DNA of 64,000 nucleotides from Haliclystus octoradiatus. Its lineage: Eukaryota > Cnidaria > Staurozoa > Stauromedusae > Haliclystidae. The stretch spans positions 16,060,267 to 16,124,266 of the forward strand of contig OU744450.1 in NCBI GenBank assembly GCA_916610825.1, given 5' to 3'. The notes under the pieces were generated by a model that saw only the letters and a program-made list of their open reading frames with translations, did no database searches and had not been told where the DNA came from. The translations under genes were made by a program, and so were the position numbers. Positions 1 to 64,000 of the stretch are shown in pieces; position 1 is the stretch's first letter; every line of letters starts with the position of its first letter.

Positions 1-13
1 TTTTGTAAAATTC

Positions 14-72
14 GAATTCCCTTGGGAATTAGGCATTGTTTTTGGTCATTTTGAGCTGTTTTTGTAAAAGTC
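14..72 (+). repeat. Representative 59-bp monomer
   Basis: Counted from the EcoRI anchor, this unit has 27 T, 12 A, 13 G and 7 C (34% G+C). Unit bases 2-17 form the inverted repeat AATTCCC-TT-GGGAATT. Bases 18-25 are AGGCATTG. T5, T4 and T5 runs sit at unit bases 26-30, 36-39 and 46-50, and an A4 run at 53-56 leads into TTC. The last four bases plus the next anchor make the 10-bp palindrome AATTCGAATT. Variants differ mainly at the AGG/AAG/GGG triplet after GGGAATT, at GAGCTG versus AAGCTG, and at the tail (AAAATTC, AAAAGTC, CAAAATTC). Confidence 0.95.
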
Positions 73-170
73 GAATTCCCTTGGGAATTAAGCATTGTTT
101 TTTCTCATTTTTCATTCCCAAGGGTACAAAGCATTGTTTTTGGTCATTTTAAGCTGTTTTTGTAAAATTC
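73..170 (+). repeat. Representative 98-bp fused variant unit
   Basis: This unit begins as an ordinary monomer through GCATTG and a T6 run, changes GGTCA to CTCA, then passes straight from a T5 run into a second core (CATTCCCAAGGG) and a second GCATTG segment before the normal tail. Its length equals two monomers (118 bp) minus 20 bp. The missing piece corresponds to GAGCTG, the second T5 run and the AAAATTC tail of the first monomer. The second core is CCCAAGGG, the reverse complement of the usual CCCTTGGG. The unit recurs roughly every 275-335 bp through the window, so on the order of two hundred copies are present. This copy carries GGGTAC where most have GGGAAC. Confidence 0.93.
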
Positions 171-288
171 GAATTCCCTTGGGAATTAAGCATTGTTTTT
201 GGTCATTTGAAGCTGTTTTTGTAAAATTCGAATTCCCTTGGGAATTGGGCATTGTTTTTGGTCATTTTGAGCTGTTTTTGTAAAAGTC

Positions 289-346
289 GAATTCCCTTGG
301 GAATTAGGCATTGTTTTTGGTCATTTTGAGCTGTTTTGTAAAATTC
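289..346 (+). repeat. Representative 58-bp unit (short T run)
   Basis: The second T run of this unit is one base shorter (GAGCTG-TTTT-GTAAAA), giving 58 bp. It normally sits just before a 98-bp unit and so marks the end of a super-unit. A different 58-bp class, for example at 445-502, has lost one G (TTTTTGTCATTTT in place of TTTTTGGTCATTTT) and normally sits just after a 98-bp unit. The fixed positions of the two classes show that the super-unit, not the monomer, is what has been amplified. Confidence 0.88.
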
Positions 347-678
347 GAATTCCCTTGGGAATTACGCATTGTTTTTTCTCATTTTTCATTCCCAAGCGAA
401 CAAAGCATTGTTTTTGGTCATTTTAAGCTGTTTTTGTAAAATTCGAATTCCCTTGGGAATTAAGCATTGTTTTTGTCATTTTGAGCTGTTTTTGTAAAAT
501 TCGAATCCCCTTGGGAATTAGGCATTGTTTTTGGTCATTTTGAGCTGTTTTTGTAAAATTCTAATTCCCTTGGGAATTGGGCATTGTTTTTGGTCATTTT
601 GAGCTGTTTTTGTAAAAGTCGAATTCCCTTGGGAATTAGGCATTGTTTTTGGTCATTTTGAGCTGTTTTGTAAAATTG
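347..678 (+). repeat. Super-unit B, 332 bp (98+58+59+59+58)
   Basis: This is the longer common super-unit: a 98-bp unit, a 58-bp TTTTTGTCATTTT unit, a 59-bp unit (here with GAATCCCC replacing the EcoRI site), a 59-bp unit starting TAATTCCC with GGGCATTG and the AAAAGTC tail, and a 58-bp unit. The next copy, 679-1009, is one base shorter in its last tail (GTAAATTGG). Runs of this super-unit dominate 9.0-9.6 kb, 13.7-14.7 kb, 15.7-16.4 kb, 18.2-18.95 kb, 28.3-32.6 kb and 36.4-37.9 kb. Confidence 0.85.
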
Positions 679-2119
679 GAATTCCCTTGGGAATTAAGCA
701 TTGTTTTTTCTCATTTTTCATTGCCAAGGGAACAAAGCATTGTTTTTGGTCATTTTAAGCTGTTTTTGTAAAATTCGAATTCCCTTGGGAATTAAGCATT
801 GTTTTTGTCATTTTGAGCTGTTTTTGTAAAATTCGAATTCCCTTGGGAATTAGGCATTGTTTTTGGTCATTTTGAGCTGTTTTTGTAAAATTCTAATTCC
901 CTTGGGAATTCGGCATTGTTTTTGGTCATTTTGAGCTGTTTTTGTAAAAGTCGAATTCCCTTGGGAATTAGGCATTGTTTTTGGTCATTTTGAGCTGTTT
1001 TGTAAATTGGAATTCCCTTGGGAATTAAGCATTGTTTTTTCTCATTTTTCATTCCCAAGGGAACAAAGCATTGTTTTTGGTGATTTTAAGCTGTTTTTGT
1101 AAAATTCGAATTCCCTTGGGAATTAAGCATTGTTTTTGTCATTTTGAGCTGTTTTTGTAAAATTCGAATTCTCTTGGGAATTAGGCATTGTTTTTGATCG
1201 CTTTAAGCTGTTTTTGCAAAATTCGAATTCCCTTGGGGATTAAGCATTGTTTTTTCTCATTTTTCATTCCCAAGGGAACAAAGCATTGTTTTTGGTCATT
1301 TTAAGCTGTTTTTGTAAAATTCGAATTCCCTTGGGAATTAAGCATTGTTTTTGGTCATTTGAAGCTGTTTTTGTAAAATTCGAATTCCCTTGGGAATTGG
1401 GCATAGTTTTTGGTCATTTTGAGCTGTTTTTGTAAAAGTCGAATTCCCTTGGGAATTAGGCATTGTTTTTGGTCATTTTGAGCTGTTTTTGTAAAATTCG
1501 AATTCCCTTGGGAATTAAGCATTGTTTTTTCTCATTTTTCATTCCCAAGGGAACAAAGCATTGTTTTTGGTCATTTTAAGCTGTTTTTGTAAAATTCAAA
1601 TTCCCTTGGGAATTAAGCATTGTTTTTGGTCATTTGAAGCTGTTTTTGTAAAATTCGAATTCCCTTGGGAATTGGGCATTGTTTTTGGTCATTTTGAGCT
1701 GTTTTTGTAAAAGTCGAATTCCCTTGGGAATTAGGCATTGTTTTTGGTCATTTTGAGCTGTTTTGTAAAATTCGAATTCCCTTGGGAATTAAGCATTGTT
1801 TTTTCTCATTTTTCATTCCCAAGGGAACAAAGCATTGTTTTTGGTCATTTTAAGCTGTTTTTGTAAAATTCGAATTCCCTTGGGAATTAAGCATTGTTTT
1901 TGTCATTTTGAGCTGTTTTTGTAAAATTCGAATTCCCTTGGGAATTAGGCATTGTTTTTGGTCATTTTGAGCTGTTTTTGTAAAATTCGAATTCCCTTGG
2001 GAATTAAGCATTGTTTTTGTCATTTTGAGCTGTTTTTGTAAAATTCGAATCCCCTTGGGAATTAGGCATTGTTTTTGGTCATTTTGAGCTGTTTTTGTAA
2101 AATTCTAATTCCCTTGGGA

Positions 2120-3228
2120 AGTAAGCATTGTTTTTGTCATTTTGAGCTGTTTTTGTAAAATTCGAATTCTCTTGGGAATTAGGCATTGTTTTTGATCGCT
2201 TTAAGCTGTTTTTGCAAAATTCGAATTCCCTTGGGAATTAAGCATTGTTTTTTCTCATTTTTCATTCCCAAGGGAACAAAGCATTGTTTTTGGTCATTTT
2301 AAGCTGTTTTTGTAAAATTCGAATTCCCTTGGGAATTAAGCATTGTTTTTGTCATTTTGAGCTGTTTTTATAAAATTCAAATTCCCTAGGGAATTGGGCA
2401 TTGTTTTTGGTCGTTTTGAGCTGTTTTTGTAAAATTCGAATTCCCTTGGGAATTAGGCATTGTTTTTGGTCATTTTGAGCTGTTTTTGTAAAATTCGAAT
2501 TCCCTTGGGAATTAAGCATTGTTTTTGTCATTTTGAGCTGTTTTTGTAAAATTCGAATTCTCTTGGGAATTAGGTATTGTTTTTGATCGGTTTAAGCTGT
2601 TTTTGTAAAATTCGAATTCCCTTGGGAATTGTTTTTGGTCATTTTGAGCTGTTTTTATAAAATTCAAATTTTCTTGGGAATTGGGCATTGTTTTTGGTCG
2701 TTTTAAGCTGTTTTTGTAAAATTCGAATTCCCTTGGGAATTAAGCATTGTTTTTGGTCATTTGAAGATGTTTTTGTAAAATTCGAATTCCCTTGGGAATT
2801 GGGCATTGTTTTTGGTCATTTTGAGCTGTTTTAGTAAAAGTCGAATTCCCTTGGGAATTAGGCATTGTTTTTGGTAATTTTGAGCTGTTTTGTAAAATTC
2901 GAATTCCCTTGGGAATTAAGCATTGTTTTTTCTCATTTTTCATTCCCAAGGGAACAAAGCATTGTTTTTGGTCATTTTAAGCTGTTTTTGTAAAATTCGA
3001 ATTCCCTTGGGAATTAAGCATTGTTTTTGTCATTTTGAGCTGTTTTTGTAAAATTCGAATTCCCTTGGGAATTGAGCATTGTTTTTGGTCATTTGAAGAT
3101 GTTTTTGTAAAATTCGAATTCCCTTGGGAATTGGGCATTGTTTTTGGTCATTTTGAGCTGTTTTTGTAAAAGTCGAATTCCCTTGGGAATTAGGCATTTT
3201 TTTTGGTCATTTTGAGCTGTTTTGTAAA
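2120..3228. repeat. Mixed monomer block between duplications
   Basis: This stretch holds only satellite units. It includes GATCGCTTTAAGCTG units with a GCAAAATTC tail (near 2190), one copy of the GATCGG / 52-bp / GGTCGTTTT series (near 2565-2720) and super-units of 98, 58 and 59 bp units. A unit near 3190 reads GGCATTTTTTTTGG, with a T in place of the usual G. Nothing other than satellite is present. Confidence 0.8.
2614..2665 (+). repeat. Representative 52-bp unit (7-bp deletion)
   Basis: The usual GGGAATT-AGGCATT-GTTTTT is reduced to GGGAATT-GTTTTT, a loss of 7 bp between two ATT triplets. Other copies include 4114-4165 and units near 5340, 6298, 10904, 13134, 15184, 33075, 41630, 43634, 47618, 49998, 51602, 53240, 54603, 55635, 57800, 59440, 60280 and 62080. 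The unit nearly always has the same neighbours: upstream a unit with TTGATCGGTTTAAGCTG, downstream one with GGTCGTTT and CTCTTTTTGTAAC. It is therefore a fixed member of one higher-order block rather than a repeatedly arising deletion. Confidence 0.88.
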
Positions 3229-4454
3229 ATTCGAATTCCCTTGGGAATTAAGCATTGTTTTTTCTCATTTTTCATTCCCAAGGGAACAAAGCATTGTTTT
3301 TGGTCATTTTAAGCTGTTTTTGTAAAATTCGAATTCCCTTGGGAATTAAGCATTGTTTTTGTCATTTTGAGCTGTTTTTGTAAAATTCGAATTCCCTTGG
3401 GAATTAGGCATTGTTTTTGGTCATTTTGAGCTGTTTTATTAAAATTCGAATTCCCTTGGGAATTGGGCATTGTTTTTGATCATTTTGAGAATTTTTTGTA
3501 AAATTCGAATTCCCTTTGGAATTAAGCATTGTTTTTTCTCATTTTTCATTCCCAAGGTAACAAAGCATTGTTTTTGGTCATTTTAAGCAGTTTTTGTAAA
3601 ATTCGAATTCCCTTGGGAATTAGGCATTGTTTTTGATCGTTTTGAGCTGTTATTGTAAAATTCGAATTTCCTTAGGAATTAGGCATTATTTTTGGACAAT
3701 TTAAGCTGTTTTTGTGAAATTCGAATTCCCTTCGGAATTAGGCATTGTAATTGGTCATTTTGGGCTGTTTTTGTAAAATTCGAATTCCCTTTGGAATTAG
3801 GCATTGTTTTTTCTCATTTTTCATTCCCAAGGGAATAAAGCATTGTTTTTGGTCATTTTAAGCTGTTTTTGTAAAATTCGAATTCCCTTAGGAATTAGGC
3901 ATTGTTTTTATCATTTTGAGCTGTTTTTGTAAAATTCGAATTCCCTTGGGAATTAGGCATTTTTTTTTGTCATTTTGAGCTGTTTTTAAAAAATTCGAAT
4001 TCCCTTGGGAATTAAGCATTGTTTTTGTCATATTGAGCTGTTTTTGTAAAATTCGAATTCTCTTGGGAATTAGGTATTGTTTTTGATCGGTTTAAGCTGT
4101 TTTTGTAAAATTTGAATTCCCTTGGGAATTGTTTTTGGTCATTTTTAGCTGTTTTTATAAAATTCAAATTCTCATGGGAATTGGGCATTGTTTTTGGTCG
4201 TTTCAAGCTCTTTTTGTAACAATCGAATTCCCTTGGGAATTGGGCATTGTTTTTGGTCATTTTGAGCTGTTTTTGTAAAATTCGAATTCCCTTTGGAATT
4301 AAGCATTGTTTTTGTCATTTTGAGCTGTTTTTGTAAAATTCGAATTCCCTTTGGAATTAAGCATTGTTTTTGTCATTTTGAGCTGTTTTTGTAAAATTCG
4401 AATTCTCTTGGGAATTAGGCATTGTTTTTGATCGCTTTAAGCTGTATTTGCAAA
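3229..4454. repeat. 1.23-kb higher-order repeat, copy 1
   Basis: Markers in this block recur about 1,227 bp to the right: CTGTTTTATTAAAATTC (3431 and 4657), CCCAAGGTAAC (near 3551 and 4777), and GTATTTGCAAAATTAG (near 4443 and 5670). It contains diverged monomers with CATTATTTTTGGACAATTT (near 3684), a GTGAAATTC tail, and CATTGTAATTGGTCATTTTGGG (near 3745), plus a 52-bp unit at 4114-4165. Compared with copy 2 it lacks a 59-bp unit seen near 4833 and has one extra unit near 3890-3950, so whole monomers have been gained and lost in register. Confidence 0.75.
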
Positions 4455-5681
4455 ATTAGAATTCCCTTGGGAATTAAGCATTGTTTTTTCTCATTTTTCA
4501 TTCCCAAGGGAACAAAGCATTGTTTTTGGTCATTTTAAGCTGTTTTTGTAAAATTCGAATTCCCTTGGGAATTAAGCATTGTTTTTGTCATTTTGAACTG
4601 TTTTTGTAAAATTCGAATTCCCTTGGGAATTAGGCATTGTTTTTGGTCATTTTGAGCTGTTTTATTAAAATTCGAATTCCCTTGGGAATTGGGCATTGTT
4701 TTTGATCATTTTGAGAATTTTTTGTAAAATTCGAATTCCCTTTGGAATGAAGCATTGTTTTTTCTCATTTTTCATTCCCAAGGTAACAAAGCATTGTTTT
4801 TGGTCATTTTAAGCAGTTTTTGTAAAATTCGAATTCCCTTGGAAATTGGGCATTGTTTTTGGTCATTTTGAGCTGTTTTTGTAAAAGTCGAATTCCCTTG
4901 GGAATTAGGCATTGTTTTTGATCGTTTTGAGCTGTTATTGTAAAATTCGAATTTCCTTAGGAATTAGGCATTATTTTTGGACAATTTAAGCTGTTTTTGT
5001 GAAATTCGAATTCCCTTCGGAATTAGGCATTGTAATTGGTCATTTTGGGCTGTTTTTGTAAAATTCGAATTCCCTTTGGAATTAGGCATTGTTTTTTCTC
5101 ATTTTTCATTCCCAAGGGAATAAAGCATTGTTTTTGGTCATTTTAAGCTGTTTTTGTAAAATTCGAATTCCCTTAGGAATTAGGCATTTTTTTTTGTCAT
5201 TTTGAGCTGTTTTTAAAAAATTCGAATTCCCTTGGGAATTAAGCATTGTTTTTGTCATTTTGAGCTGTTTTTGTAAAATTCGAATTCTCTTGGGAATTAG
5301 GTATTGTTTTTGATCGGTTTAAGCTGTTTTTGTAAAATTTGAATTCCCTTGGGAATTGTTTTTGGTCATTTTTAGCTGTTTTTATAAAATTCAAGTTCTC
5401 ATGGGAATTGGGCATTGTTTTTGGTCGTTTCAAGCTCTTTTTGTAACAATCGAATTCCCTTGGGAATTGGGCATTGTTTTTGGTCATTTTGAGCTGTTTT
5501 TGTAAAATTCGAATTCCCTTTGAAATTAAGCATTGTTTTTGTCATTTTGAGCTGTTTTTGTAAAATTCGAATTCCCTTTGGAATTAAGCATTGTTTTTGT
5601 CATTTTGAGCTGTTTTTGTAAAATTCGAATTCTCTTGGGAATTAGGCATTGTTTTTGATCGCTTTAAGCTGTATTTGCAAA
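4455..5681. repeat. 1.23-kb higher-order repeat, copy 2
   Basis: This is the tandem partner of 3229-4454, with the same marker order: CTGTTTTATT, CCCAAGGTAAC, GGACAATTT (near 4978), TGTAATTGGTC (near 5030), the 52-bp unit and GTATTTGC. It differs by an inserted 59-bp AAAAGTC unit near 4833, a missing unit near 5190, and scattered substitutions such as TTCAAGTTCTC near 5391 for TTCAAATTCTC in copy 1. Confidence 0.75.
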
Positions 5682-6998
5682 ATTAGAATTCCCTTGGGAA
5701 TTAAGCATTGTTTTTTCTCATTTTTCATTCCCAAGGGAACAAAGCATTGTTTTTGGTCATTTTAAGCTGTTTTTGTAAAATTTGAATTCTCTTGGGAATT
5801 AGGCATTGTTTTTGATCGTTTTGAGCTGTTATTGTAAAATTCGAATTTCCTTAGGTATTAGGCATTATTTTTGGACAATTTAAGCTGTTTTTGTGAAATT
5901 CGAATTCCCTTTGGAATTAGGCATTGTAATTGGTCATTTTGGGCTGTTTTTGTAAAATTCGAATTCCCTTTGGAATTAGGCATTGTTTTTTCTCATTTTT
6001 CATTCCCAAGGGAATAAAGCATTGTTTTTGGTCATTTTAAGCTGTTTTTGTAAAATTCGAATTCCCTTAGGAATTAGGCATTGTTTTTATCATTTTGAGC
6101 TGTTTTTGTAAAATTCGAATTCCCTTGGGAATTAGGCATTGTTTTTGGTCATTTAGAGCTGTTTTTGTAAAATTCGAATTCCCTTGGGAATTAAGCATTG
6201 TTTTTGTCATTTTGAGCTGTTTTTATAAAATTCGAATACTCTTGGGAATTAGGTATTGTTTTTGATCGGTTTAAGCTGTTTTTGTAAAATTCGAATTCCC
6301 TTGGGAATTGTTTTTGGTCATTTTGAGCTGTTTTTATAAAATTCAAATTTTCTTGGGAATTGGGCATTGTTTTTGGTCGTTTTAAGCTCTTTTTGTAACA
6401 TTCGAATTCCCTTGGGAATTGGGCATTGTTTTTGGTCATTTTGAGCTGTTTTTGTAAAATTCGAATTCCCTTGGGAATTAGGCATTGTTTTTGGTCATTT
6501 TGAGCTGTTTTTGTAAAATTCGAATTCCCTTGGGAATTAAGCATTGTTTTTTCTCATTTTTCATTCCCAAGGGTACAAAGCATTGTTTTTGGTCATTTTA
6601 AGCTGTTTTTGTAAAATTCGAATTCCCTTGGGAATTAAGCATTGTTTTTGTCATTTTGAGCTGTTTTTATAAAATTCAAATTCCCTTGGGAATTGGGCAT
6701 TGTTTTTGGTCGTTTTGAGCTGTTTTTGTAAAATTCGAATTCCCTTGGGAATTAGGCATTGTTTTTGGTCATTTTGAGCTGTTTTTGTAAAATTCGAATT
6801 CCCTTGGGAATTAAGCATTGTTTTTTCTCATTTTTCATTCCCAAAGGAACAAAGCATTGTTTTTGGTCATTTTAAGCTGTTTTTGTAAAATTCGAATTCC
6901 CTTGGGAATTAAGCATTGTTTTTGGTCATTTGAAGATGTTTTTGTAAAATTCGAATTCCCTTGGGAATTGGGCATTGTTTTTGGTCATTTTGAGCTGT
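5682..6998. repeat. Partial third copy of the 1.23-kb repeat and right-hand linker
   Basis: The diverged units reappear near 5863 (CATTATTTTTGGACAATTT) and near 5929 (TGTAATTGGTC), 894 bp after their positions in copy 2, so this copy has lost several monomers. The GATCGG / 52-bp / GGTCGTTTT series follows at about 6245-6410. From about 6480 the sequence returns to ordinary super-units, leading into the long-range duplicate that starts at 6999. Confidence 0.7.
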
Positions 6999-9117
6999 TT
7001 TTGTAAAATTCGAATTCCCTTGGGAATTAGGCATTGTTTTTGGTCATTTTGAGCTGTTTTTGTAAAAGTCGAATTCCCTTGGGAATTAAGCATTGTTTTT
7101 TCTCATTTTTCATTCCCAAGGGTACAAAGCATTGTTTTTGGTCATTTTAAGCTGTTTTTGTAAAATTCGAATTCCCTTGGGAATTAAGCATTGTTTTTGG
7201 TCATTTGAAGCTGTTTTTGTAAAATTCGAATTCCCTTGGGAATTGGGCATTGTTTTTGGTCATTTTGAGCTGTTTTTGTAAAAGTCGAATTCCCTTGGGA
7301 ATTAGGCATTGTTTTTGGTCATTTTGAGCTGTTTTGTAAAATTCGAATTCCCTTGGGAATTACGCATTGTTTTTTCTCATTTTTCATTCCCAAGCGAACA
7401 AAGCATTGTTTTTGGTCATTTTAAGCTGTTTTTGTAAAATTCGAATTCCCTTGGGAATTAAGCATTGTTTTTGTCATTTTGAGCTGTTTTTGTAAAATTC
7501 GAATCCCCTTGGGAATTAGGCATTGTTTTTGGTCATTTTGAGCTGTTTTTGTAAAATTCTAATTCCCTTGGGAATTGGGCATTGTTTTTGGTCATTTTGA
7601 GCTGTTTTTGTAAAAGTCGAATTCCCTTGGGAATTAGGCATTGTTTTTGGTCATTTTGAGCTGTTTTGTAAAATTGGAATTCCCTTGGGAATTAAGCATT
7701 GTTTTTTCTCATTTTTCATTGCCAAGGGAACAAAGCATTGTTTTTGGTCATTTTAAGCTGTTTTTGTAAAATTCGAATTCCCTTGGGAATTAAGCATTGT
7801 TTTTGTCATTTTGAGCTGTTTTTGTAAAATTCGAATTCCCTTGGGAATTAGGCATTGTTTTTGGTCATTTTGAGCTGTTTTTGTAAAATTCTAATTCCCT
7901 TGGGAATTCGGCATTGTTTTTGGTCATTTTGAGCTGTTTTTGTAAAAGTCGAATTCCCTTGGGAATTAGGCATTGTTTTTGGTCATTTTGAGCTGTTTTG
8001 TAAATTGGAATTCCCTTGGGAATTAAGCATTGTTTTTTCTCATTTTTCATTCCCAAGGGAACAAAGCATTGTTTTTGGTGATTTTAAGCTGTTTTTGTAA
8101 AATTCGAATTCCCTTGGGAATTAAGCATTGTTTTTGTCATTTTGAGCTGTTTTTGTAAAATTCGAATTCTCTTGGGAATTAGGCATTGTTTTTGATCGCT
8201 TTAAGCTGTTTTTGCAAAATTCGAATTCCCTTGGGGATTAAGCATTGTTTTTTCTCATTTTTCATTCCCAAGGGAACAAAGCATTGTTTTTGGTCATTTT
8301 AAGCTGTTTTTGTAAAATTCGAATTCCCTTGGGAATTAAGCATTGTTTTTGGTCATTTGAAGCTGTTTTTGTAAAATTCGAATTCCCTTGGGAATTGGGC
8401 ATAGTTTTTGGTCATTTTGAGCTGTTTTTGTAAAAGTCGAATTCCCTTGGGAATTAGGCATTGTTTTTGGTCATTTTGAGCTGTTTTTGTAAAATTCGAA
8501 TTCCCTTGGGAATTAAGCATTGTTTTTTCTCATTTTTCATTCCCAAGGGAACAAAGCATTGTTTTTGGTCATTTTAAGCTGTTTTTGTAAAATTCAAATT
8601 CCCTTGGGAATTAAGCATTGTTTTTGGTCATTTGAAGCTGTTTTTGTAAAATTCGAATTCCCTTGGGAATTGGGCATTGTTTTTGGTCATTTTGAGCTGT
8701 TTTTGTAAAAGTCGAATTCCCTTGGGAATTAGGCATTGTTTTTGGTCATTTTGAGCTGTTTTGTAAAATTCGAATTCCCTTGGGAATTAAGCATTGTTTT
8801 TTCTCATTTTTCATTCCCAAGGGAACAAAGCATTGTTTTTGGTCATTTTAAGCTGTTTTTGTAAAATTCGAATTCCCTTGGGAATTAAGCATTGTTTTTA
8901 TCATTTTGAGCTGTTTTTGTAAAATTCGAATTCCCTTGGGAATTAGGCATTGTTTTTGGTCATTTTGAGCTGTTTTTGTAAAATTCGAATTCCCTTGGGA
9001 ATTAAGCATTGTTTTTGTCATTTTGAGCTGTTTTTGTAAAATTCGAATCCCCTTGGGAATTAGGCATTGTTTTTGGTCATTTTGAGCTGTTTTTGTAAAA
9101 TTCTAATTCCCTTGGGA
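6999..9117. repeat. Long-range duplication, right copy (partner 1-2119)
   Basis: It is nearly identical to 1-2119 at a constant offset of 6,998 bp with no indel visible over about 2.1 kb, although this family gains and loses units readily. Constant offset and shared private variants point to a recent single event, or to homogenisation, rather than independent amplification. The copy ends near 9117. Confidence 0.85.
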
Positions 9118-25491: not shown

Positions 25492-25505
25492 TCCCTTGGG
25501 GATTA
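25480..25505. repeat. Deletion junction: TTG joined to TTCCCTTGGGG
   Basis: A 98-bp unit is cut right after CAAAGCATTG and joined to TTCCCTTGGGGATTAAGC, the start of another unit. The T run, GGTCATTTTAAGCTG, second T run and tail that should lie between them are missing, about 35 bp, with a TT shared at the join. It ends the region matched by 25,608-27,253. Confidence 0.82.
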
Positions 25506-25607
25506 AGCATTGTTTTTTCTCATTTTTCATTCCCAAGGGAACAAAGCATTGTTTTTGGTCATTTTAAGCTGTTTTTGTAAAATTCGAATTCCCTTGGGAA
25601 TTAAGCA

Positions 25608-41500: not shown

Positions 41501-41640
41501 TTTTCTCATTTTTCATTCACAAGGGAACAAAGCATTGTTTTTGGTCATTTTAAGCTGTTTTTGTAAAATTCGAATTCTCTTGGGAATTAGGCATTGTTTT
41601 TGATCGGTTTAAGCTGTTTTTGTAAAATTCGAATTCCCTT

Positions 41641-52953: not shown

Positions 52954-53830
52954 TTTTTGGTCATTTCGAGCATTTTTTGTAAAATTCGAATTCCGTTGGG
53001 AATTAAGCATTGTTTTTTCTCATTTTTCATTCCCAAGGGAACAAAGCATTGTTTTTGGTCTATTTAAGCTGTTTTTGTAAAATTCGAATTCCCTTTGGAA
53101 TTAAGCATTTTTTTTTCTCATTTATCATTCCCAAGGGAACTAAGCATTGTTTTTGGTCATTTTAAGCTGTTTTTGTAAAATTCGAATTCTCTTGAAAATT
53201 AGGCATTGTTTTTGATCGGTTTAAGCTGTTTTTGTAAAATTCGAATTCCCTTGGGAATTGTTTTTGGTCATTTTGAGCTGTTATTATAAAATTCGAATTC
53301 TCTTGGGAATTGGGCATTGTTTTTGGTCGTTTTAAACTCTTTTTGTAACATTCGAATTCCCTTGGGAATTAGGCATTGTTTTTGGTCATTTTGAGCTGTT
53401 TTTGTAAAATTCGAATTCCCTTGGGAATTGGGCATTGTTTTTGGTCATTTTGAGCATTTTTTGTAAAATTCGAATTCCCTTGGGAATTAAGCATTGTTTT
53501 TTCTCATTTTTCATTCCCAAGGGAACAAAGCATTGTTTTTGGTCATTTGAAGCTGTTTTTGTAAAATTCGAATTCCCTTGGGAATTGGGCATTGTTTTTG
53601 GTCATTTTGAGCTGTTTTTGTAAAAGTCGAATTCCCTTGGGAATTAGGCATTGTTTTTGGTCATTTTGAGCTGTTTTGTAAAATTCGAATTCCCTTGGGA
53701 ATTAAGCATTGTTTTTTCTCATTTTTCATTCCCAATGGAACAAAGCATTGTTTTTGGTCATTTTAAGCTGTTTTTGTAAAATTCGAATTCCCTTGGGAAT
53801 TAAGCATTGTTTTTGTCATTTTGAGCTGTT
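52954..53830. repeat. 1,640-bp repeat, copy 2 (partial)
   Basis: Matches 51,314-52,190 and includes the same CCCAATGGAAC core variant (near 53,732, also near 52,092 and 52,818). It has CATTTTTTTTTCTC near 53,108 where copy 1 has CATTGTTTTTTCTC. Similarity is lost where the GAAAAATTC cluster of copy 1 begins. Confidence 0.75.
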
Positions 53831-56800
53831 TTTGTAAAATTCGAATTCTCTTGGGAATTAGGCATTGTTTTTGATCGCTTTAAGCTGTTTTTGCAAAATT
53901 CGAATTCCCTTGGGAATTAAGCATTGTTTTTTCTCATTTTTCATTCCCAAGGGAACAACTCATTGTTTTTGGTCATTTTAAGCTGTTTTTGTAAAATTCG
54001 AATTCCCTTGGGAATTAAGCATTGTTTTTGGTCATTTGAAGCTGTTTTTGTAAAATTCGAATTCCCTTGGGAATTGGGCATAGTTTTTGGTCATTTTGAG
54101 CTGTTTTTGTAAAAGTCGAATTCCCTTGGGAATTAGGCATTGTTTTTGGTCATTTTGAGCTGTTTTGTAAAATTCGAATTCCCTTGGGATTTAAGCATTG
54201 TTTTTTCTCATTTTTCATTCCCAAGCGAACAAAGCATTGTTTTTGGTCATTTTAAGCTGTTTTTGTAAAATTCGAATTCCCTTGGGAATTAAGCATTGTT
54301 TTTGTCATTTTGAGCTGTTTTTGTAAAATTTGAATTCTCTTGGGAATTAGGCATTGTTTTTGTTCGCTTTAAGCTGTTTTTGCAAAATTCGAATTCCCTT
54401 GGGAATTAAGCATTGTTTTTTCTCATTTTTCATTCCCAAGGGAACAAAGCATTGTTTTTGGTCATTTTAAGCTGTTTTTGTAAAATTCGAATTCCCTTTG
54501 GAATTAAGCATTGTTTTTTTCATTTTGAGCTGTTTTTGTAAAATTCGAATTCTCTTGGGAATAAGGCATTGTTTTTGATCGGTTTAAGCTGTTTTTGTAA
54601 AATTCGAATTCCCTTGGGAATTGTTTTTGGTCATTTTGAGCTGTTATTATAAAATTCGAATTCTCTTGGGAATTGGGCATTGTTTTTGGTCGTTTTAAGC
54701 TCTTTTTGTGAAAGTCGAATTCCCTTGAGAATTAGGCATTGTTTTTGGTCATTTTGAGCTGTTTTGTAAAATTCGAATTCCATTTGGAATTGGGCATTGT
54801 TTTTGGTCAATTTGAGCTGTTTTTGTAAAATTCGAATTCTCTTGGGATCTAGGCATTGTTTTTATCGCTTTAAGCTGTTTTTGCAAAATTCGAATTCCCT
54901 TGGGAATTAAGCATTGTTTTTTCTCATTTTTCATTCCCAAGGGAACAAAGCATTGTTTTTGGTCATTTTAAGCTGTTTTTGTAAAATTCGAATTCCCTTG
55001 GGAATTAAGCATTGTTTTTGGTCATTTGAAGCTGTTTTTGTAAAATTCGAATTCCCTTGGGAATTGGGCATTGTTTTTGGTCATTTTGAGATGTTTTTGT
55101 AAAAGTCGAATTCCCTTGGGAATTAGGCATTGTTTTTGGTCATTTTGAGCTGTTTTGTAAAATTCGAATTCCCTTGGGAATTACGTATTGTTTTTTCTCA
55201 TTTTTCATTCCCAAGGGAACAAATCATTGTTTTTGGTCATTTTAAGCTGTTTTTGTAAAATTCGAATTCCCTTGGGAATTAAGCATTGTTTTTGTCATTT
55301 TGAGCTGTTTTTGTAAAATTCGAATTCCCTTGGGAATAGGGCATTGTTTTTGGTCATTTTGAGCATTTTTTGTAAAATTCGAATTCCCTTGGGAATTAAG
55401 CATTGTTTTTTCTAATTTTTCAATCCCAAGGGAACAAAGCATTGTTTTTGGTCATTTTAAGCTGTTTTTGTAAAATTCGAATTCCCTTAGGAATTAAGCA
55501 TTGTTTTTTCTCATTTTTCATTCCCAAGGGAACAAAGCATTGTTTTTGGTCATTTTAAGCTGTTTTTGTAAAATTATAATTCTCTTGGGAATTAGCCATT
55601 GTTTTTGATCGGTTTAAGCTGTTTTTGTAAAATTCGAATTCCCTTGGGAATTGTTTTTGGTCATTTTGAGCTGTTAATATAAAATTCGAATTCTCTTGGG
55701 AATTGGGCATTGTTTTTGGTCGTTTTAAACTCTTTTTGTAACATTCGAATTCCCTTGGGAATTGGGCATTGTTTTTGGTCATTTTGAGCTGTTTTTGTAA
55801 AATTCGAATTCCCTTGGGAATTAGGCATTTTTTTTGGTCATTTTGAGCTGTTTTTGTAAAATTCGAATTACCTTGGGAATTGGGCATTGTTTTTGGTCAT
55901 TTTGAGCATTTTTTGTAAAATTCGAATTCCCTTGGGAATTAAGCATTGTTTTTTCTCATTTTCCATTCCCAAGGGAACAAAGCATTGTTTTTGGTCATTT
56001 GAAGCTGTTTTTGTAAAATTCGAATTCCCTTGGGAATTGGGCATTGTTTTTTCTCATTTTTCATTCCCAAGGGAACAAAGCATTGTTTTTGGTCATTTTT
56101 AGCTGTTTTTGTAAAATTCGAATTCCCTTGGGAATTAAGCATTTTTTTGAGATTTTGAGCTGTTTTTGTAAAATTCGAATTCTCTTGGGAATTAGGCATT
56201 GTTTTTGATCGCTTTAAGCTGTTTTTGAAAAATTCGAATTCCCTTGGGAATTGGGCATTGTTTTTGGTCATTTTGAGCTGTTTTTGTAAAAGTCGAATTC
56301 CCTTGGGAATTGGGCATTGTTTTTGGTCATTTTCCATTCCCAAGGGAACAAAGCATTGTTTTTGGTCATTTGAAGCTGTTTTTGTAAAATTCGAATTCCC
56401 TTGGGAATTAAGCATTGTTTTTGGTCGTTTTAAACTCTTTTTGTAACATTCGAATTCCCTTGGGAATTGGGCATTGTTTTTGGTCATTTTGAGATGTTTT
56501 TGTAAAAGTCGAATTCCCTTGGGAATTAGGCATTGTTTTTGGTCATTTTGAGCTGTTTTGTAAAATTCGAATTCCCTTGGGAATTACGCATTGTTTTTTC
56601 TCATTTTTCATTCCCAAGGGAACAAAGCATTGTTTTTGGTCATTTTAAGCTGTTTTTGTAAAATTCGAATTCCCTTGGGAATTAAGCATTGTTTTTGTCA
56701 TTTTGAGCTGTTTTTGTAAAATTCGAATTCCCTTGGGAATTAGGCATTGTTTTTGGTCATTTCGAGCTGTTTTTGTAAAATTCGAATTCCCTTGGGAATT

Positions 56801-57349
56801 GGGCATTGTTTTTGGTCTTTTTGAGCATTTTTTGTAAAATTCGAATTCCCTTGGGAATTAAGCATTGTTTTTTCTCATTTTTCATTCCCAAGGGAACAAA
56901 GCATTGTTTTTGGTCATTTTAAGCTGTTTTTGTAAAATTCGAATTCCCTTGGGAATTAAGCATTGTTTTTGGTCATTTGAAGCTGTTTTTGTAAAATTCG
57001 AATTCCCTTGGGAATTAAGCATTGTTTTTGTCAGTTTGAGCTGTTTTTGTAAAATTCGAATTCTCTTGGGAATTAGGCATTGTTTTTTCTCATTTTTCAT
57101 TCCCAAGGGAACAAAGCATTGTTTTTGGTCATTTTAAGCTGTTTTTGTAAAATTCGAATTCCCTTGGGAATTAAGCATTATTTTTTCATTTTGAGCTGTT
57201 TTTGTAAAATTCGAATTCTCTTGGGAATAAGGCATTGTTTTTGATCGGTTTAAGCTGTTTTTGTAAAATTCGAATTCCCTTGGGAATTGGGCATTGTTTT
57301 TGGTCATTTTGAGCTGTTTTTGTAAAAGTCGAATTCCCTTGGGAATTAG
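53831..57349. repeat. Mixed super-unit region
   Basis: Only satellite. Local landmarks are GGGAACAACTCATTG near 53,951, GGGATCTAGGCATTG near 54,845 (recurring near 63,130, about 8,285 bp away), GTTAATATAAAATTC near 55,673, a GAGATTTTGAGC variant near 56,149 and the hybrid junction at 56,318-56,345. The minus strand at 55,939-56,487 happens to be open for 182 codons, which I treat as chance in repeat DNA. Confidence 0.78.
56318..56345. repeat. Second hybrid junction, GGTCATTTT joined to CCATTCCCAAGGG
   Basis: As at 22,150-22,170, an ordinary monomer head (GGGCATTG, T5, GGTCATTTT) runs into the flipped-core half of a 98-bp unit, skipping the CTCA seen in normal fused units. The core entry CCATTCCC matches the variant near 55,963, so that unit or a close relative is the likely parent. 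Confidence 0.72.
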
Positions 57350-59788
57350 GCATTGTTTTTGGTCATTTTGAGCTGTTTTGTAAAATTCGAATTCCCTTGG
57401 GAATTAAGCATTGTTTTTTCTCATTTTTCATTCCCAAGGGAACAAAGCATTGTTTTTGGTCATTTTGAGCTGTTTTTGTAAAAGTCGAATTCCCTTGGGA
57501 ATTAGGCATTGTTTTTGGTCATTTTGAGCTGTTTTGTAAAATTCGAATTCCCTTGGGAATTAAGCATTGTTTTTTCTCATTTTTCATTCCCAAGGGAACA
57601 AAGCATTGTTTTTGGTCTATTTAAGCTGTTTTTGTAAAATTCGAATTCCCTTTGGAATTAAGCATTGTTTTTTCTCATTTTTCATTCCCAAGGGAACTAA
57701 GCATTGTTTTTGGTCATTTTAAGCTGTTTTTGTAAAATTCGAATTCTCTTGGGAATTAGGCATTGTTTTTGATCGGTTTAAGCTGTTTTTGTAAAATTCG
57801 AATTCCCTTGGGAATTGTTTTTGGTCATTTTGAGCTGTTATTATAAAATTCGAATTCTCTTGGGAATTGGGCATTGTTTTTGGTCGTTTTAAACTCTTTT
57901 TGTAACATTCGAATTCCCTTGGGAATTAGGCATTGTTTTTGGTCATTTTGAGCTGTTTTTGTAAAATTCGAATTCCCTTGGGAATTGGGCATTGTTTTTG
58001 GTCATTTTGAGCATTTTTTGTAAAATTCGAATTCCCTTGGGAATTAAGCATTGTTTTTTCTCATTTTTCATTCCCAAGGGAACAAAGCATTGTTTTTGGT
58101 CATTTGAAGCTGTTTTTGTAAAATTCGAATTCCCTTGGGAATTGGGCATTGTTTTTGGTCATTTTGAGCTGTTTTTTTAAAATTCGAATTCCCTTGGGAA
58201 TTAAGCATTGTTTTTGTCATTTTGAGCTGTTTTTGTAAAATTCGAATTCCCTTGGGAATTGGGCATTGTTTTTTCTCATTTTTCATTCCCAATGGAACAA
58301 AGCATTGCTTTTGGTCATTTTAAGCTGTTTTTGCAAAATTCGAATTCCCTTGGGAATTAAGCATTGTTTTTTCTAATTTTTCATTCCCAAGGGAACAAAG
58401 CATTGTTTTTGGTCATTTTAAGCTGTTTTTGTAAAATTCGAATTCCCTTGGGAATTAAGCATTGTTTTTGGTCATTTGAAGCTGTTTTTGTAAAATTCGA
58501 ATTCCCTTGGGAATTGGGCATAGTTTTTGGTCATTTTGAGCTGTTTTGTAAAATTCGAATTCCCTTGGGAATTAAGCATTGTTTTTTCTCATTTTTCATT
58601 CCCAAGGGAACAAAGCATTGTTTTTGGTCATTTTAAGCTGTTTTTGTAAAATTCGAATTCCTTTGGGAATTAATCATTGTTTTTATCATTTTGAGCTGTT
58701 TTTGTAAAATTCGAATTCTCTTGGGAATTAGGCATTGTTTTTGATCGCTTTAAGCTGTTTTTGAAAAGTTCGAATTCCCTTGGGAATTAAGCATTGTTTT
58801 AGGTCATTTTGAGCTGTTTTTGAAAAATTCGAATTCCCTTGGGAATTAAGCATTGTTTAAGGTCATTTTGAGCTGTTTTTGAAAAATTCGAATTCCCTTG
58901 GGAATTAGGCATTGTTTTAGGTCATTTTGAGCTGTTTTTGTAAAATTCGAATTCCCTTGGGAATTAAGCATTGTTTTAGGTCATTTTGAGCTGTTTTTGA
59001 AAAATTCGAATTCCCTTGGGAATTAAGCATTGTTTTTGTCATTTTGAGCTGTTTTTGTAAAATTCGAATTCCCTTGGGAATTAGGCATTGTTTTTGGTCA
59101 TTTTGAGCTGTTTTTGTAAAGTTCGAATTCCCTTGGGAATTGGGCATTGTTTTTAGTCATTTTGAGCATTTTTTGTAAAATTCGAATTCCCTTGGGAATT
59201 AAGCATTGTTTTTTCTCATTTTTCATTCCCAAGGGAACAAAGCATTGTTTTTGGTCTATTTAAGCTGTTTTTGTAAAATTCGAATTCCCTTGGGAATTAA
59301 GCATTGTTTTTTCTCATTTTTCATTCCCAAGGGAACAAAGCATTGTTTTTGGTCATTTTAAGCTGTTTTTGTAAAATTCGAATTCTCTTGGGAATTAGGC
59401 ATTGTTTTTGATCGGTTTAAGCTGTTTTTGTAAAATTCGAATTCCCTTGGGTATTGTTTTTGGTCATTTTGAGCTGTTATTATAAAATTCGAATTCTCTT
59501 GGGAATGGGGCATTGTTTTTGGTCGTTTTAAACTCTTTTTGTAACATTCGAATTCCCTTGGGAATTGGGCATTGTTTTTGGTCATTTTGAGCTGTTTTTG
59601 TAAAATTCGAATTCCCTTGGGAATTGGGCATTGTTTTTGGTCATTTTGAGCATTTTTTGTAAAATTCAAATTCCCTTGGGAATTAAGCATTGTATTTTCT
59701 CATTTTTCATTCCCAAGGGAACAAAGCATTGTTTTTGGTCATTTGAAGCTGTATTTGTAAAATTCGAATTCCCTTGGGAATTGGGCAT
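57350..59788. repeat. 2.5-2.6 kb higher-order repeat, copy 1
   Basis: Paired with copy 2 by GGTCTATTTAAGC (57,614/60,088), GTTTTTTTAAAATTC (58,171/60,801), GCATTGCTTTTGG (near 58,302/60,932), the GAAAAATTC cluster (near 58,800/61,430), TTTTTAGTCATTTTGAGC (near 59,150/61,780), GGGTATTG (near 59,450/62,080) and TTGTATTTTCTC (near 59,690/62,320). The offset is 2,474 bp before 58,171 and 2,630 bp after it. The 156-bp step equals one 98-bp plus one 58-bp unit. Confidence 0.85.
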
Positions 59789-59823
59789 TGTTTTTTCTCA
59801 TTTTTCATTCCCAAGGGAACAAA

Positions 59824-62418
59824 GCATTGTTTTTGGTCATTTTGAGCTGTTTTGTAAAATTCGAATTCCCTTGGGAATTAAGCATTGTTTTTTCTCATTT
59901 TTCATTCCCAAGGGAACAAAGCATTGTTTTTGGTCATTTTGAGCTGTTTTTGTAAAAGTCGAATTCCCTTGGGAATTAGGCATTGTTTTTGGTCATTTTG
60001 AGCTGTTTTGTAAAATTCGAATTCCCTTGGGAATTAAGCATTGTTTTTTCTCATTTTTCATTCCCAAGGGAACAAAGCATTGTTTTTGGTCTATTTAAGC
60101 TGTTTTTGTAAAATTCGAATTCCCTTTGGAATTAAGCATTGTTTTTTCTCATTTTTCATTCCCAAGGGAACAAAGCATTGTTTTTGGTCATTTTAAGCTG
60201 TTTTTGTAAAATTCGAATTCTCTTGGGAATTAGGCATTGTTTTTGATCGGTTTAAGCTGTTTTTGTAAAATTCGAATTCCCTTGGGAATTGTTTTTGGTC
60301 ATTTTGAGCTGTTATTATAAAATTCGAATTCTCTTGGGAATTGGGCATTGTTTTTGGTCGTTTTAAACTCTTTTTGTAACATTCGAATTCCCTTGGGAAT
60401 TAGGCATTGTTTTTGGTCATTTTGAGCTGTTTTTGTAAAATTCGAATTCCCTTGGGAATTGGGCATTGTTTTTGGTCATTTTGAGCATTTTTTGTAAAAT
60501 TCGAATTCCCTTGGGAATTAAGCATTGTTTTTTCTCATTTTTCATTCCCAAGGGAACAAAGCATTGTTTTTGGTCATTTGAAGCTGTTTTTGTAAAATTC
60601 GAATTCCCTTGGGAATTGGGCATTGTTTTTGGTCATTTTGAGCTGTTTTTGTAAAAGTTGAATTCCCTTGGGAATTAGGCATTGTTTTTGGTCATTTTGA
60701 GCTGTTTTGTAAAATTCGAATTCCCTTGGGAATTAAGCATTGTTTTTTCTCATTTTTCATTCCCAATGGAACAAAGCATTGTTTTTGGTCATTTTAAGCT
60801 GTTTTTTTAAAATTCGAATTCCCTTGGGAATTAAGCATTGTTTTTGTCATTTTGAGCTGTTTTTGTAAAATTCGAATTCCCTTGGGAATTGGGCATTGTT
60901 TTTTCTCATTTTTCATTCCCAATGGAACAAAGCATTGCTTTTGGTCATTTTAAGCTGTTTTTGCAAAATTCGAATTCCCTTGGGAATTAAGCATTGTTTT
61001 TTCTAATTTTTCATTCCCAAGGGAACAAAGCATTGTTTTTGGTCATTTTAAGCTGTTTTTGTAAAATTCGAATTCCCTTGGGAATTAAGCATTGTTTTTG
61101 GTCATTTGAAGCTGTTTTTGTAAAATTCGAATTCCCTTGGGAATTGGGCATAGTTTTTGGTCATTTTGAGCTGTTTTGTAAAATTCGAATTCCCTTGGGA
61201 ATTAAGCATTGTTTTTTCTCATTTTTCATTCCCAAGGGAACAAAGCATTGTTTTTGGTCATTTTAAGCTGTTTTTGTAAAATTCGAATTCCCTTGGGAAT
61301 TAAGCATTGTTTTTGTCATTTTGAGCTGTTTTTGTAAAATTCGAATTCTCTTGGGAATTAGGCATTGTTTTTGATCGCTTTAAGCTGTTTTTGAAAAATT
61401 CGAATTCCCTTGGGAATTAAGCATTGTTTTAGGTCATTTTGAGCTGTTTTTGAAAAATTCGAATTCCCTTGGGAATTAAGCATTGTTTAAGGTCATTTTG
61501 AGCTGTTTTTGAAAAATTCGAATTCCCTTGGGAATTAGGGATTGTTTTAGGTCATTTTGAGCTGTTTTTGTAAAATTCGAATTCCCTTGGGAATTAAGCA
61601 TTGTTTTAGGTCATTTTGAGCTGTTTTTGAAAAATTCGAATTCCCTTGGGAATTAAGCATTGTTTTTGTCATTTTGAGCTGTTTTTGTAAAATTCGAATT
61701 CCCTTGGGAATTAGGCATTGTTTTTGGTCATTTTGAGCTGTTTTTGTAAAGTTCGAATTCCCTTGGGAATTGGGCATTGTTTTTAGTCATTTTGAGCATT
61801 TTTTGTAAAATTCGAATTCCCTTGGGAATTAAGCATTGTTTTTTCTCATTTTTCATTCCCAAGGGAACAAAGCATTGTTTTTGGTCTATTTAAGCTGTTT
61901 TTGTAAAATTCGAATTCCCTTGGGAATTAAGCATTGTTTTTTCTCATTTTTCATTCCCAAGGGAACAAAGCATTGTTTTTGGTCATTTTAAGCTGTTTTT
62001 GTAAAATTCGAATTCTCTTGGGAATTAGGCATTGTTTTTGATCGGTTTAAGCTGTTTTTGTAAAATTCGAATTCCCTTGGGTATTGTTTTTGGTCATTTT
62101 GAGCTGTTATTATAAAATTCGAATTCTCTTGGGAATGGGGCATTGTTTTTGGTCGTTTTAAACTCTTTTTGTAACATTCGAATTCCCTTGGGAATTGGGC
62201 ATTGTTTTTGGTCATTTTGAGCTGTTTTTGTAAAATTCGAATTCCCTTGGGAATTGGGCATTGTTTTTGGTCATTTTGAGCATTTTTTGTAAAATTCAAA
62301 TTCCCTTGGGAATTAAGCATTGTATTTTCTCATTTTTCATTCCCAAGGGAACAAAGCATTGTTTTTGGTCATTTGAAGCTGTATTTGTAAAATTCGAATT
62401 CCCTTGGGAATTGGGCAT
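59824..62418. repeat. 2.5-2.6 kb higher-order repeat, copy 2
   Basis: Partner of 57,350-59,788 with 156 extra bases near 60,645-60,800. Small differences include TTAGGGATTG near 61,538 where copy 1 has TTAGGCATTG, and AAAAGTTG near 60,654. The copies part at 59,789/62,419, where copy 1 enters a 98-bp unit (TTTTTTCTC) and copy 2 an ordinary monomer. Confidence 0.85.
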
Positions 62419-63061
62419 TGTTTTTGGTCATTTTGAGCTGTTTTTGTAAAAGTCGAATTCCCTTGGGAATTAGGCATTGTTTTTGGTCATTTTGAGCTGT
62501 TTTGTAAAATTCAAATTCCCTTGGGAATTAAGCATTGTTTTTTCTCATTTTTCATTCCCAAGGGAACAAAGCATTGTTTTTGGTCATTTTAAGCTGTTTT
62601 TGTAAAATTCGAATTCCCTTGGGAATTAAGCATTGTTTTTGTCATTTTGAGCTGTTTTTGTAAAATTCGAATTCCCTTGTTAATTAAGCATTGTTTTTGG
62701 TCATTTGAAGCTGTTTTTGTAAAATTCGAATTCCCATGGGAATTGGCCATAGTTTTTGGTCATTTTGAGCTGTTTTTGTAAAAGTCGAATTCCCTTGGGA
62801 ATTAGGCATTGTTTTTGGTCATTTTGAGCTGTTTTGTAAAATTCGAATTCTCTTGGAAATTAGGCATTGTTTTTGATCGGTTTAAGCTGTTTTTGCAAAA
62901 GTCGAATTCCCTTGGGAATTAAGCATTGTTTTTTCTCATTTTTCATTCCCAAGGGAACAATGCATTGGTTTTGGTCATTTTAAGCTCTTTTTGTGAAAGT
63001 CGAATTCCCTTGGGAATTAGGCATTGTTTTTGGTCATTTTGAGCTGTTTTGTAAAATTCGA
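62365..63061. repeat. 939-bp tandem repeat, copy 1
   Basis: Markers 939 bp apart: TTCAAATTCCC (near 62,510/63,449), CCCTTGTTAATTAAGC (62,674/63,613), GGCCATAG (near 62,745/63,684), CTCTTGGAAATTAGG (near 62,850/63,789), GCAAAAGTC (near 62,894/63,833) and CTCTTTTTGTGAAAGTC (near 62,985/63,924). Confidence 0.83.
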
Positions 63062-63303
63062 ATTCCCTTGGGAATTGGGGATTGTTTTTGGTCATTTTGA
63101 GCTGTTTTTGTAAAATTCGAATTCTCTTGGGATCTAGGCATTGTTTTTGATCGCTTTAAGCTGTTTTTGCAAAATTCGAATTCCCTTGGGAATTAAGCAT
63201 TGTTTTTTCTCATTTTTCATTCCCAAGGGAACAAAGCATTGTTTTTGGTCATTTTAAGCTGTTTTTGTAAAATTCGAATTCCCTTGGGAATTAAGCATTG
63301 TTT

Positions 63304-64000
63304 TTGGTCATTTGAAGCTGTTTTTGTAAAATTCGAATTCCCTTGGGAATTGGGCATTGTTTTTGGTCATTTTGAGATGTTTTTGTAAAAGTCGAATTCC
63401 CTTGGGAATTAGGCATTGTTTTTGGTCATTTTGAGCTGTTTTGTAAAATTCAAATTCCCTTGGGAATTAAGCATTGTTTTTTCTCATTTTTCATTCCCAA
63501 GGGAACAAAGCATTGTTTTTGGTCATTTTAAGCTGTTTTTGTAAAATTCGAATTCCCTTGGGAATTAAGCATTGTTTTTGTCATTTTGAGCTGTTTTTGT
63601 AAAATTCGAATTCCCTTGTTAATTAAGCATTGTTTTTGGTCATTTGAAGCTGTTTTTGTAAAATTCGAATTCCCTTGGGAATTGGCCATAGTTTTTGGTC
63701 ATTTTGAGCTGTTTTTGTAAAAGTCGAATTCCCTTGGGAATTAGGCATTGTTTTTGGTCATTTTGAGCTGTTTTGTAAAATTCGAATTCTCTTGGAAATT
63801 AGGCATTGTTTTTGATCGCTTTAAGCTGTTTTTGCAAAAGTCGAATTCCCTTGGGAATTAAGCATTGTTTTTTCTCATTTTTCATTCCCAAGGGAACAAT
63901 GCATTGTTTTTGGTCATTTTAAGCTCTTTTTGTGAAAGTCGAATTCCCTTGGGAATTAGGCATTGTTTTTGGTCATTTTGAGCTGTTTTGTAAAATTCGA
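63304..64000. repeat. 939-bp tandem repeat, copy 2, cut by the window edge
   Basis: Partner of 62,365-63,061, running to the last base. Differences include TTGATCGCTTTAAGC near 63,813 where copy 1 has TTGATCGGTTTAAGC, and GCATTGTTTTTGG near 63,900 where copy 1 has GCATTGGTTTTGG. The intervening 63,062-63,303 holds a GGGATCTAGG unit and the start of a 274-bp super-unit. Confidence 0.83.

What the first reader, a model, noticed from the sequence alone, without database searches (positions are those of the whole stretch)
1..64000. A gene-free 64-kb satellite with at least four nested levels of periodicity
The sequence shows monomers (52/58/59/98 bp), super-units (274 and 332 bp), kilobase repeats (0.23 to 2.6 kb) and very large repeats (3,984 bp, 5.2-5.45 kb and 6,998 bp), with no interruption. 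Nested higher-order structure is known from alpha satellite and some plant centromeres. I do not recognise this 59-bp family, so it may be undescribed. That it marks a centromere or another specialised domain is inference.
Basis: partly seen in the sequence, partly recalled or inferred. Interest (0 to 1): 0.75.

Follow-up and report, generated by a model that had tools for sequence, protein, structure and literature searches.

The report
Short-unit satellite DNA with layered repeats
The 64,000 bases are a tandem repeat without recognisable genes, made of two related short units (59 and 39 bases) arranged in larger blocks that have been copied again and again; it is a good example of satellite DNA from an unknown host, but of a familiar kind, and nothing in it shows that it is a centromere.

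Summary
The window is one uninterrupted, single-orientation satellite tiled by two monomers: A (59 bp, 942 copies) and B (39 bp, 227 copies; A without ~20 bp, palindrome centre AA instead of TT). Runs of A closed by one B make 215-, 274- and 332-bp blocks, and monomers carry position-specific variants, so a higher-order repeat exists, though equal blocks follow one another at most 3-4 times. The kilobase "levels" are not regular periods but separate duplications: 18 of 19 strictly tandem ones have 1.85-2.73 copies; one of ~5.2-5.5 kb is interrupted; the 6,998 lag is a 2.6-kb match. Some are truly nested. A weaker ~20-bp sub-repeat lies below the monomer. Best explanation: neutral or selfish expansion by out-of-register copying. 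Host, chromosomal place and centromere role could not be tested. No CENP-B box; bending and selection on the palindrome not supported. The palindrome matches the animal COE/EBF consensus in 701 of 942 A copies, a curiosity while the host is unknown. Possibly a new family; the kind is known.

The parts
1..64000 (+). Continuous head-to-tail satellite array, one orientation, T-rich on the + strand, about 33% GC; neither end is in the window
   Evidence: 63,978 of 64,000 bases in units at 70% identity or more; 0 minus-strand self-hits at 97% or more
131..189 (+). Example of a 59-bp A monomer: commonest variant (89 of 942 copies), here the first monomer after a B unit; ends with the dyad AATTCCCTTGGGAATT and two more bases
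92..130 (+). Example of a 39-bp B monomer (a one-base variant of the consensus). B consensus resembles A positions 1-20 joined to 41-59 (30 of 39 identical), with dyad centre AA in place of TT
6580..7402 (+). Run of three consecutive A4B blocks (274, 275, 274 bp)
13747..14742 (+). Run of three consecutive A5B blocks (332 bp each); the local 333-bp lag is the only tandem match with more than 3 copies (4.56, 13,471-14,987)
43529..51861 (+). Tandem duplication, lag 3,982-3,984 bp, 2.09 copies, 99.5% identical
30744..41503 (+). Duplication of a unit of 5,235-5,455 bp (two copies, aligned in two pieces, unaligned at this setting near 33.2-33.8 kb), with smaller duplications (lags 841 and 450) in both copies
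1..9582 (+). 6,998-bp lag: bases 1-2,584 match 6,999-9,582 at 98.8%; cut by the window start
58146..62425 (+). Direct duplication, lag 2,630 bp (58,146-59,795 and 60,776-62,425, 99.6%)
23784..27254 (+). Tandem duplication, lag 1,762 bp, 1.97 copies, 99.3%
43500..64000 (+). Right-hand sub-array: more B units (B/A 0.32 then 0.27, against 0.20-0.23 to the left), runs of alternating A and B, at most 893 bp of 97%-identical match to the left part

Best explanation
This is a eukaryotic satellite array that grew by repeated out-of-register copying. Inferred history: a ~20-bp T-rich unit gave a 59-bp trimer (A); loss of ~20 bp and changes in the palindrome centre gave the 39-bp B; A runs closed by one B became blocks (A3B, A4B, A5B) whose monomers gained position-specific variants; later, segments of 0.3 to 5.5 kb were duplicated, mostly once each, at different places and times. 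Unequal sister exchange or break-induced replication can give this pattern with no sequence function needed. Shown: the units, blocks, position-specific variants and the size and identity of the duplications. Inferred: eukaryotic host, the order of events, the copying mechanism, and residence in heterochromatin (centromeric, pericentromeric, subtelomeric or interstitial not separable here).
For: Two-monomer tiling of the window. B is closest to A with one ~20-bp piece removed (30 of 39 identical, three adjacent deletion positions tie); A matches itself at shift 20 at 0.492 against a 99th percentile of 0.441 for shuffles at shifts 19/20. Higher-order test: same position in different blocks is more alike than different positions in one block (0.940 v 0.906 for 50 A3B, 0.957 v 0.922 for 48 A4B, 0.980 v 0.934 for 25 A5B, 0.953 v 0.927 for 17 A7B; above all 200 permutations each). 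It survives removal of identical blocks (35, 35, 18 and 16 distinct: 0.935 v 0.904, 0.948 v 0.919, 0.975 v 0.932, 0.951 v 0.926; above all 200 permutations each). Matches of 97% or more (the cut-off) and 500 bp or more touch 92.8% of the window. Of 490 such hits 19 are strictly tandem, lags 331-3,982 bp; 18 have 1.85-2.73 copies and one 4.56. The review PMC8997354 (passages seen) gives unequal exchange and break-induced replication as models for higher-order repeats.
Against: Block sizes are not random: n=3 and 4 are over-represented (50 and 48 against 23.5 and 18.6) and n=0 nearly absent (2 against 44.1); copying in blocks can give this, but so could selection on spacing. Distinct blocks are still related by descent, so the permutations are not independent tests. 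Exact copies of nearly 2 kb could partly be assembly artefact; reads were not available. No flanking chromosome sequence is in the window, and no test here separates unequal exchange from break-induced replication.
Confidence: 0.8

Rival explanations
1. It is the functional centromere core: centromeric nucleosomes sit on the A_nB blocks and the monomer dyads form hairpins or cruciforms that help to place them.
For: Higher-order organisation and recent homogenisation. The A consensus holds a dyad of 7-bp arms (AATTCCC-TT-GGGAATT), and short dyads below 10 bp are reported as enriched in centromeric DNA of several taxa (PMC8997354 and PMC13081366, passages seen). An A+B pair folds better than shuffles (z -2.48; 1 of 200 as well).
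Against: No CENP-B box, 0 on either strand (motif recalled), though many centromeres lack it. The single A monomer does not fold unusually (z -1.32, 20 of 200 shuffles as good; reverse strand z -0.57, 50 of 200) and B not at all (z 0.31, 118 of 200). Abundant satellites also occur away from centromeres: FokI of Vicia faba lies in bands of long arms (PMC5895790, passages seen).
Confidence: 0.25
2. The palindrome is a protein-binding site kept by selection, with COE/EBF (an animal transcription factor) as the best match I know, making the array a sink or organiser for that protein.
For: ATTCCCNNGGGAAT, the EBF consensus quoted in PMC4512700 (passages seen), occurs 713 times and TTCCCNNGGGAA 881 times; the full form lies in 701 of 942 A and 12 of 227 B copies, the 12-bp core in 703 and 178. 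The 16-bp dyad is the least variable of 59 circular windows of A by departure rate. In B rare alleles are somewhat fewer in the dyad (0.42 against 0.63 per column; 9 of 39 windows as low).
Against: Counting alleles, the A dyad is not constrained: 33 to 40 of 59 circular windows carry as few or fewer; B departs as often in the dyad as elsewhere (0.0253 against 0.0251). Changes on both sides that keep the pair are few: 3 copies at pair 47-52 and 1 at 48-51, against 106 and 69 changed on one side. The host is unknown; no motif library was searched.
Confidence: 0.05
3. Structural DNA: phased T-tracts bend the array and compact heterochromatin.
For: AA/TT dinucleotides have their strongest period at 9.76 bp (power 51.8, next 6.52 bp at 46.0), and tracts of 4 or more A or T are phased at 9.78 bp (0.679 against 0.344 for shuffles).
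Against: A wedge model (parameters recalled) predicts DNA no more bent than shuffles (end-to-end/contour 0.922 against 0.894, lower is more bent), and phasing at 10.5 bp is below shuffles (0.135 against 0.318).
Confidence: 0.05
4. The kilobase layer is an assembly artefact: wrongly duplicated contig ends or haplotypes.
For: Exact repeats of 1,987 and 1,901 bp.
Against: The 490 matches of 500 bp or more have identities of 97.0-99.6% (median 97.5, cut-off 97), many different lags, and small duplications nested in both copies of a larger one, which assembly errors would not readily give.
Confidence: 0.1

Closest known systems
FokI satellite of Vicia faba (59 bp)
   Same: 59-bp monomer with a shorter variant (59/57 in print, PMC5895790, passages seen), very abundant
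   Different: FokI site GGATG absent on both strands of the window (site recalled); the two FokI primers match no better than in 5 shuffled windows (12 and 6 mismatches, shuffles 7-10 and 5-7); AT 59.3% in print against 67% here
59-bp pericentromeric satellite of Mus caroli
   Same: 59 bp, rich in A/T runs, many variants, arrays near centromeres (PMC13371928, passages seen)
   Different: three of the six printed guide sequences were tested; they match no better than in shuffles (5, 6 and 6 mismatches, shuffles 3 to 5)
Primate alpha satellite higher-order repeats (recalled, except monomer length)
   Same: monomers with position-specific variants repeated as blocks; homogenised copies
   Different: 171-bp monomer in alpha satellite (passage in PMC11917152); here 59/39 bp, blocks of variable size, at most 3-4 equal blocks in a row, no CENP-B box
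Higher-order satellites of the Drosophila ananassae subgroup
   Same: long, rarely interrupted higher-order arrays outside primates (PMC11917152, passages seen)
   Different: monomers of 99-411 bp there
TmSat1/TmSat2 of Tribolium madens
   Same: short dyads in subunits, subunit-built repeats (PMC13081366, passages seen)
   Different: ~110-bp ancestral unit and large inverted subarrays there; here no inverted segment at 97% identity

Membership tests
Satellite DNA (tandem, non-coding) | Long head-to-tail array of related short units | tested here: met
   1,169 units, 63,978 of 64,000 bases; no inverted copies at 97% or more
Satellite DNA (tandem, non-coding) | No recognisable genes | tested here: met
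   (4 of 13 listed ORFs were scanned against Pfam)
Higher-order repeat | Same-position monomers of different blocks more alike than monomers within a block | tested here: met
   for 140 of 227 blocks (sizes 3, 4, 5, 7), for the 104 distinct ones among them
Higher-order repeat | One block size repeated regularly | tested here: not met
   longest runs 3-4 equal blocks; 43 of 226 neighbours equal against 32.2 expected, p 0.028
CENP-B-type centromeric satellite | CENP-B box (motif recalled) | tested here: not met
   0 on both strands
FokI satellite of Vicia faba | FokI site and printed primer sequences | tested here: not met
Centromeric satellite | CENH3/CENP-A occupancy | not testable with these tools
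   no chromatin data, host unknown
Named satellite in a eukaryotic repeat library | Library match | not testable with these tools
   no such library; strings from the monomers in held papers: 0 papers for 6 terms; 6 and 2 papers for 7 terms, on other subjects by title and abstract start

The most novel reading that the evidence does not exclude
An animal satellite in which most monomers (703 of 942 A and 178 of 227 B) carry a palindromic COE/EBF-type core site, about 14 per kilobase, so that the array could bind and sequester, or be organised by, a developmental transcription factor.
Probability: 0.03. Interest if true: 0.7.

Novelty: new member of a known kind. Interest (0 to 1): 0.3.

Why it matters
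It is a readable record of how a satellite grows: a ~20-bp unit, two monomers, blocks with position-specific variants, then tandem duplications, some nested in others so that their order can be told. That makes it a usable test case for models of unequal exchange against break-induced replication. If the host has no described centromeric satellite, the 59/39-bp pair is a ready probe for FISH and chromatin profiling.

Tried and rejected
Bent DNA: rejected. Selection on the dyad: suggested by the departure rate, not borne out by allele counts in A (26 of 942 A rows and 1 of 227 B rows with gaps of five or more were dropped there). Hairpin strength of the single monomer: not unusual. CpG decay as a sign of methylation: the consensus CpG (positions 40-41) is not the most mutated site, so I drew no inference about the host. 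Coding: ORFs of up to 182 aa, mostly on the minus strand; 4 of 13 given to Pfam, hits at E 0.035 to 0.39 all well under their cut-offs.

Relatives: none by blastn with bases 1-4,000 in plasmids or phages, none by exact pattern in viral contigs or prokaryote genomes. The first genome-contig scan had a wrong spacing (three N in place of two), so its zero means nothing; one search used a pattern first shown to match the window 613 times. These collections are not eukaryotic, so the absence is expected. Ten printed primers and guides of other satellites were compared with the window and 5 shuffles: nine match no better than the shuffled range; one, the CentO primer, has 6 mismatches of 25 against 7 in each shuffle, too weak to mean kinship.

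Papers: ten searches gave none that I could see to hold this sequence. I saw listings for all (one search lists 20 of 74) and passages of nine papers. In the crayfish and Prochilodus papers '59 bp' is a median monomer length. The other papers that mention 59 bp were not opened. Supplements could not be read, so satellite tables there were not checked.
Full report
What is there. The window is one satellite array from end to end. A two-template dynamic-programming decomposition divides it into 1,169 units: 942 of type A (59 bp; GCATTGTTTTTGGTCATTTTGAGCTGTTTTTGTAAAATTCGAATTCCCTTGGGAATTAG; mean identity to consensus 0.949, minimum 0.779) and 227 of type B (39 bp; GCATTGTTTTTTCTCATTTTTCATTCCCAAGGGAACAAA; mean 0.974, minimum 0.487 in one 22-bp remnant). 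Units at 70% identity or more cover 63,978 of 64,000 bases. Self-matches at 97% or more are all in one orientation. The strongest lags in the identity autocorrelation are 59, 215, 117, 274 and 98. The 58-bp forms (240 of 942) fit loss of one base in a G or T run, at position 12 (gap in 14.4% of A copies) or 27 (12.6%).

Below the monomer. A matches itself at shift 20 with identity 0.492; the 99th percentile of shuffled monomers at shifts 19/20 is 0.441, and the 95th percentile of the best of shifts 5-29 is 0.458. B is best explained as A without 20 bp starting at 21, 22 or 23 (30 of 39 identical, a tie). In A the dyad centre is TT (CCCTTGGG in 741 of 942, CCCAAGGG in 0); in B it is AA (182 of 227; TT in 1). 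Whether this came by inversion of the palindrome or by two substitutions cannot be told.

Blocks. Runs of n A units closed by one B have n = 3 (50), 4 (48), 1 (35), 5 (25), 7 (17), 6 (16), 2 (15) and others, 227 in all. A3B, A4B and A5B are mostly 215, 274 and 332 bp. Against a random order of the same units, n = 3 and 4 are more than twice as frequent and n = 0 nearly absent (2 against 44.1). Monomers at a given place in a block are more alike across blocks than are monomers within one block, for all four sizes tested (140 of 227 blocks), above every one of 200 permutations. Identical blocks could inflate this, so I repeated it on the 104 distinct blocks among the 140: the result stands for all four sizes. 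This is the mark of a higher-order repeat. But equal blocks seldom follow each other: the longest runs are 3-4, and 43 of 226 neighbouring pairs are equal against 32.2 expected, p 0.028.

Kilobase layer. 3,984: 43,529-47,878 against 47,511-51,861, 99.5%, 2.09 copies. 5,235/5,455: 30,744-33,212 against 35,980-38,452 and 33,788-36,048 against 39,244-41,503, read here as one two-copy duplication with an indel; a partial third match lies at 26,073-27,218. 6,998: 1-2,584 against 6,999-9,582. Of 490 hits of 500 bp or more at 97% or more, 19 are strictly tandem (lag at most 1.3 times the match): lags 331 to 3,982 bp; 18 have 1.85-2.73 copies and one, the 333-bp lag at 13,471-14,987, has 4.56. Some are nested: lags of 841 and 450 recur in both copies of the 5.2-kb duplication (31,035 and 36,270; 31,485 and 36,720), so the small ones are probably older. 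Of the 490 hits, 52 link the part left of 43 kb with the part right of 43.5 kb, none longer than 893 bp: two sub-arrays of different history seem to meet there.

Genes and relatives. No tRNA, no Rfam family at the gathering score, no Pfam family at its cut-off in the 4 ORFs given of 13 listed; longest open frame 214 codons. No relative of bases 1-4,000 in the phage and plasmid collections and no exact pattern match in viral contigs or prokaryote genomes (one search was wrongly built and does not count). No whole genome is held for the window. That the host is a eukaryote is inference from 64 kb of gene-free satellite; nothing tells which.

Function tests. CENP-B box 0 (motif recalled). Bending not above shuffles. 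Dyad: least variable stretch of A by departure rate (rank 1 of 59) but not by number of alleles (33 to 40 of 59 windows as low); in B the departure rate is the same as elsewhere while rare alleles are somewhat fewer (9 of 39 windows as low). Changes on both sides of the dyad that keep the pair number 4 copies in all. So selection on the dyad is not supported. Single-strand folding of A is ordinary (z -1.32; reverse strand -0.57), of B too (z 0.31), and of an A+B pair mildly unusual (z -2.48), because the two dyads can pair with each other. The EBF consensus ATTCCCNNGGGAAT (PMC4512700, passages seen) occurs 713 times; with the host unknown this is a curiosity.

Comparison. Two other ~59-bp satellites that could be compared by printed primers or guides are different sequences: FokI of Vicia faba and the pericentromeric satellite of Mus caroli. 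Full-text searches for 13 strings from the monomers found 8 papers, all on other subjects by title and abstract start. So the family may be undescribed, but no eukaryotic repeat library was searched.

Verdict. Real, strongly non-random, and of a known kind: satellite DNA with an irregular higher-order structure, most likely made by out-of-register copying. A centromere role is possible but untested.

Noticed in passing
window 43,500-64,000: Change of array character: more B units, runs of alternating A and B (46,354-46,756 and 50,338-50,740), slightly lower GC skew, little long match to the left part.
   Followed up: partly
window 25,485-25,506: A 22-bp remnant unit, apparently a deletion that joins the start of one monomer to its dyad.
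   Followed up: no
window 44,999; 46,452; 48,983; 50,436: Four 68-bp monomers with about 9 extra bases, found in both copies of the 3,984-bp duplication.
   Followed up: no
window 2,631; 4,131; 5,358; 6,310 and others (22 copies): 54-bp monomers lacking the first five bases, in the places listed often right after a 57-bp monomer lacking its last two: a linked junction variant that may mark one lineage of blocks.
   Followed up: no
whole window: In B the palindrome centre is AA (182 of 227) where A has TT (741 of 942), as if the palindrome had been turned round.
   Followed up: partly
window, 13 ORFs of 100 aa or more, 12 on the minus strand (e.g. 55,939-56,487): Repeat-derived open frames up to 182 aa, which an automatic annotation may list as hypothetical proteins.
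   Followed up: partly
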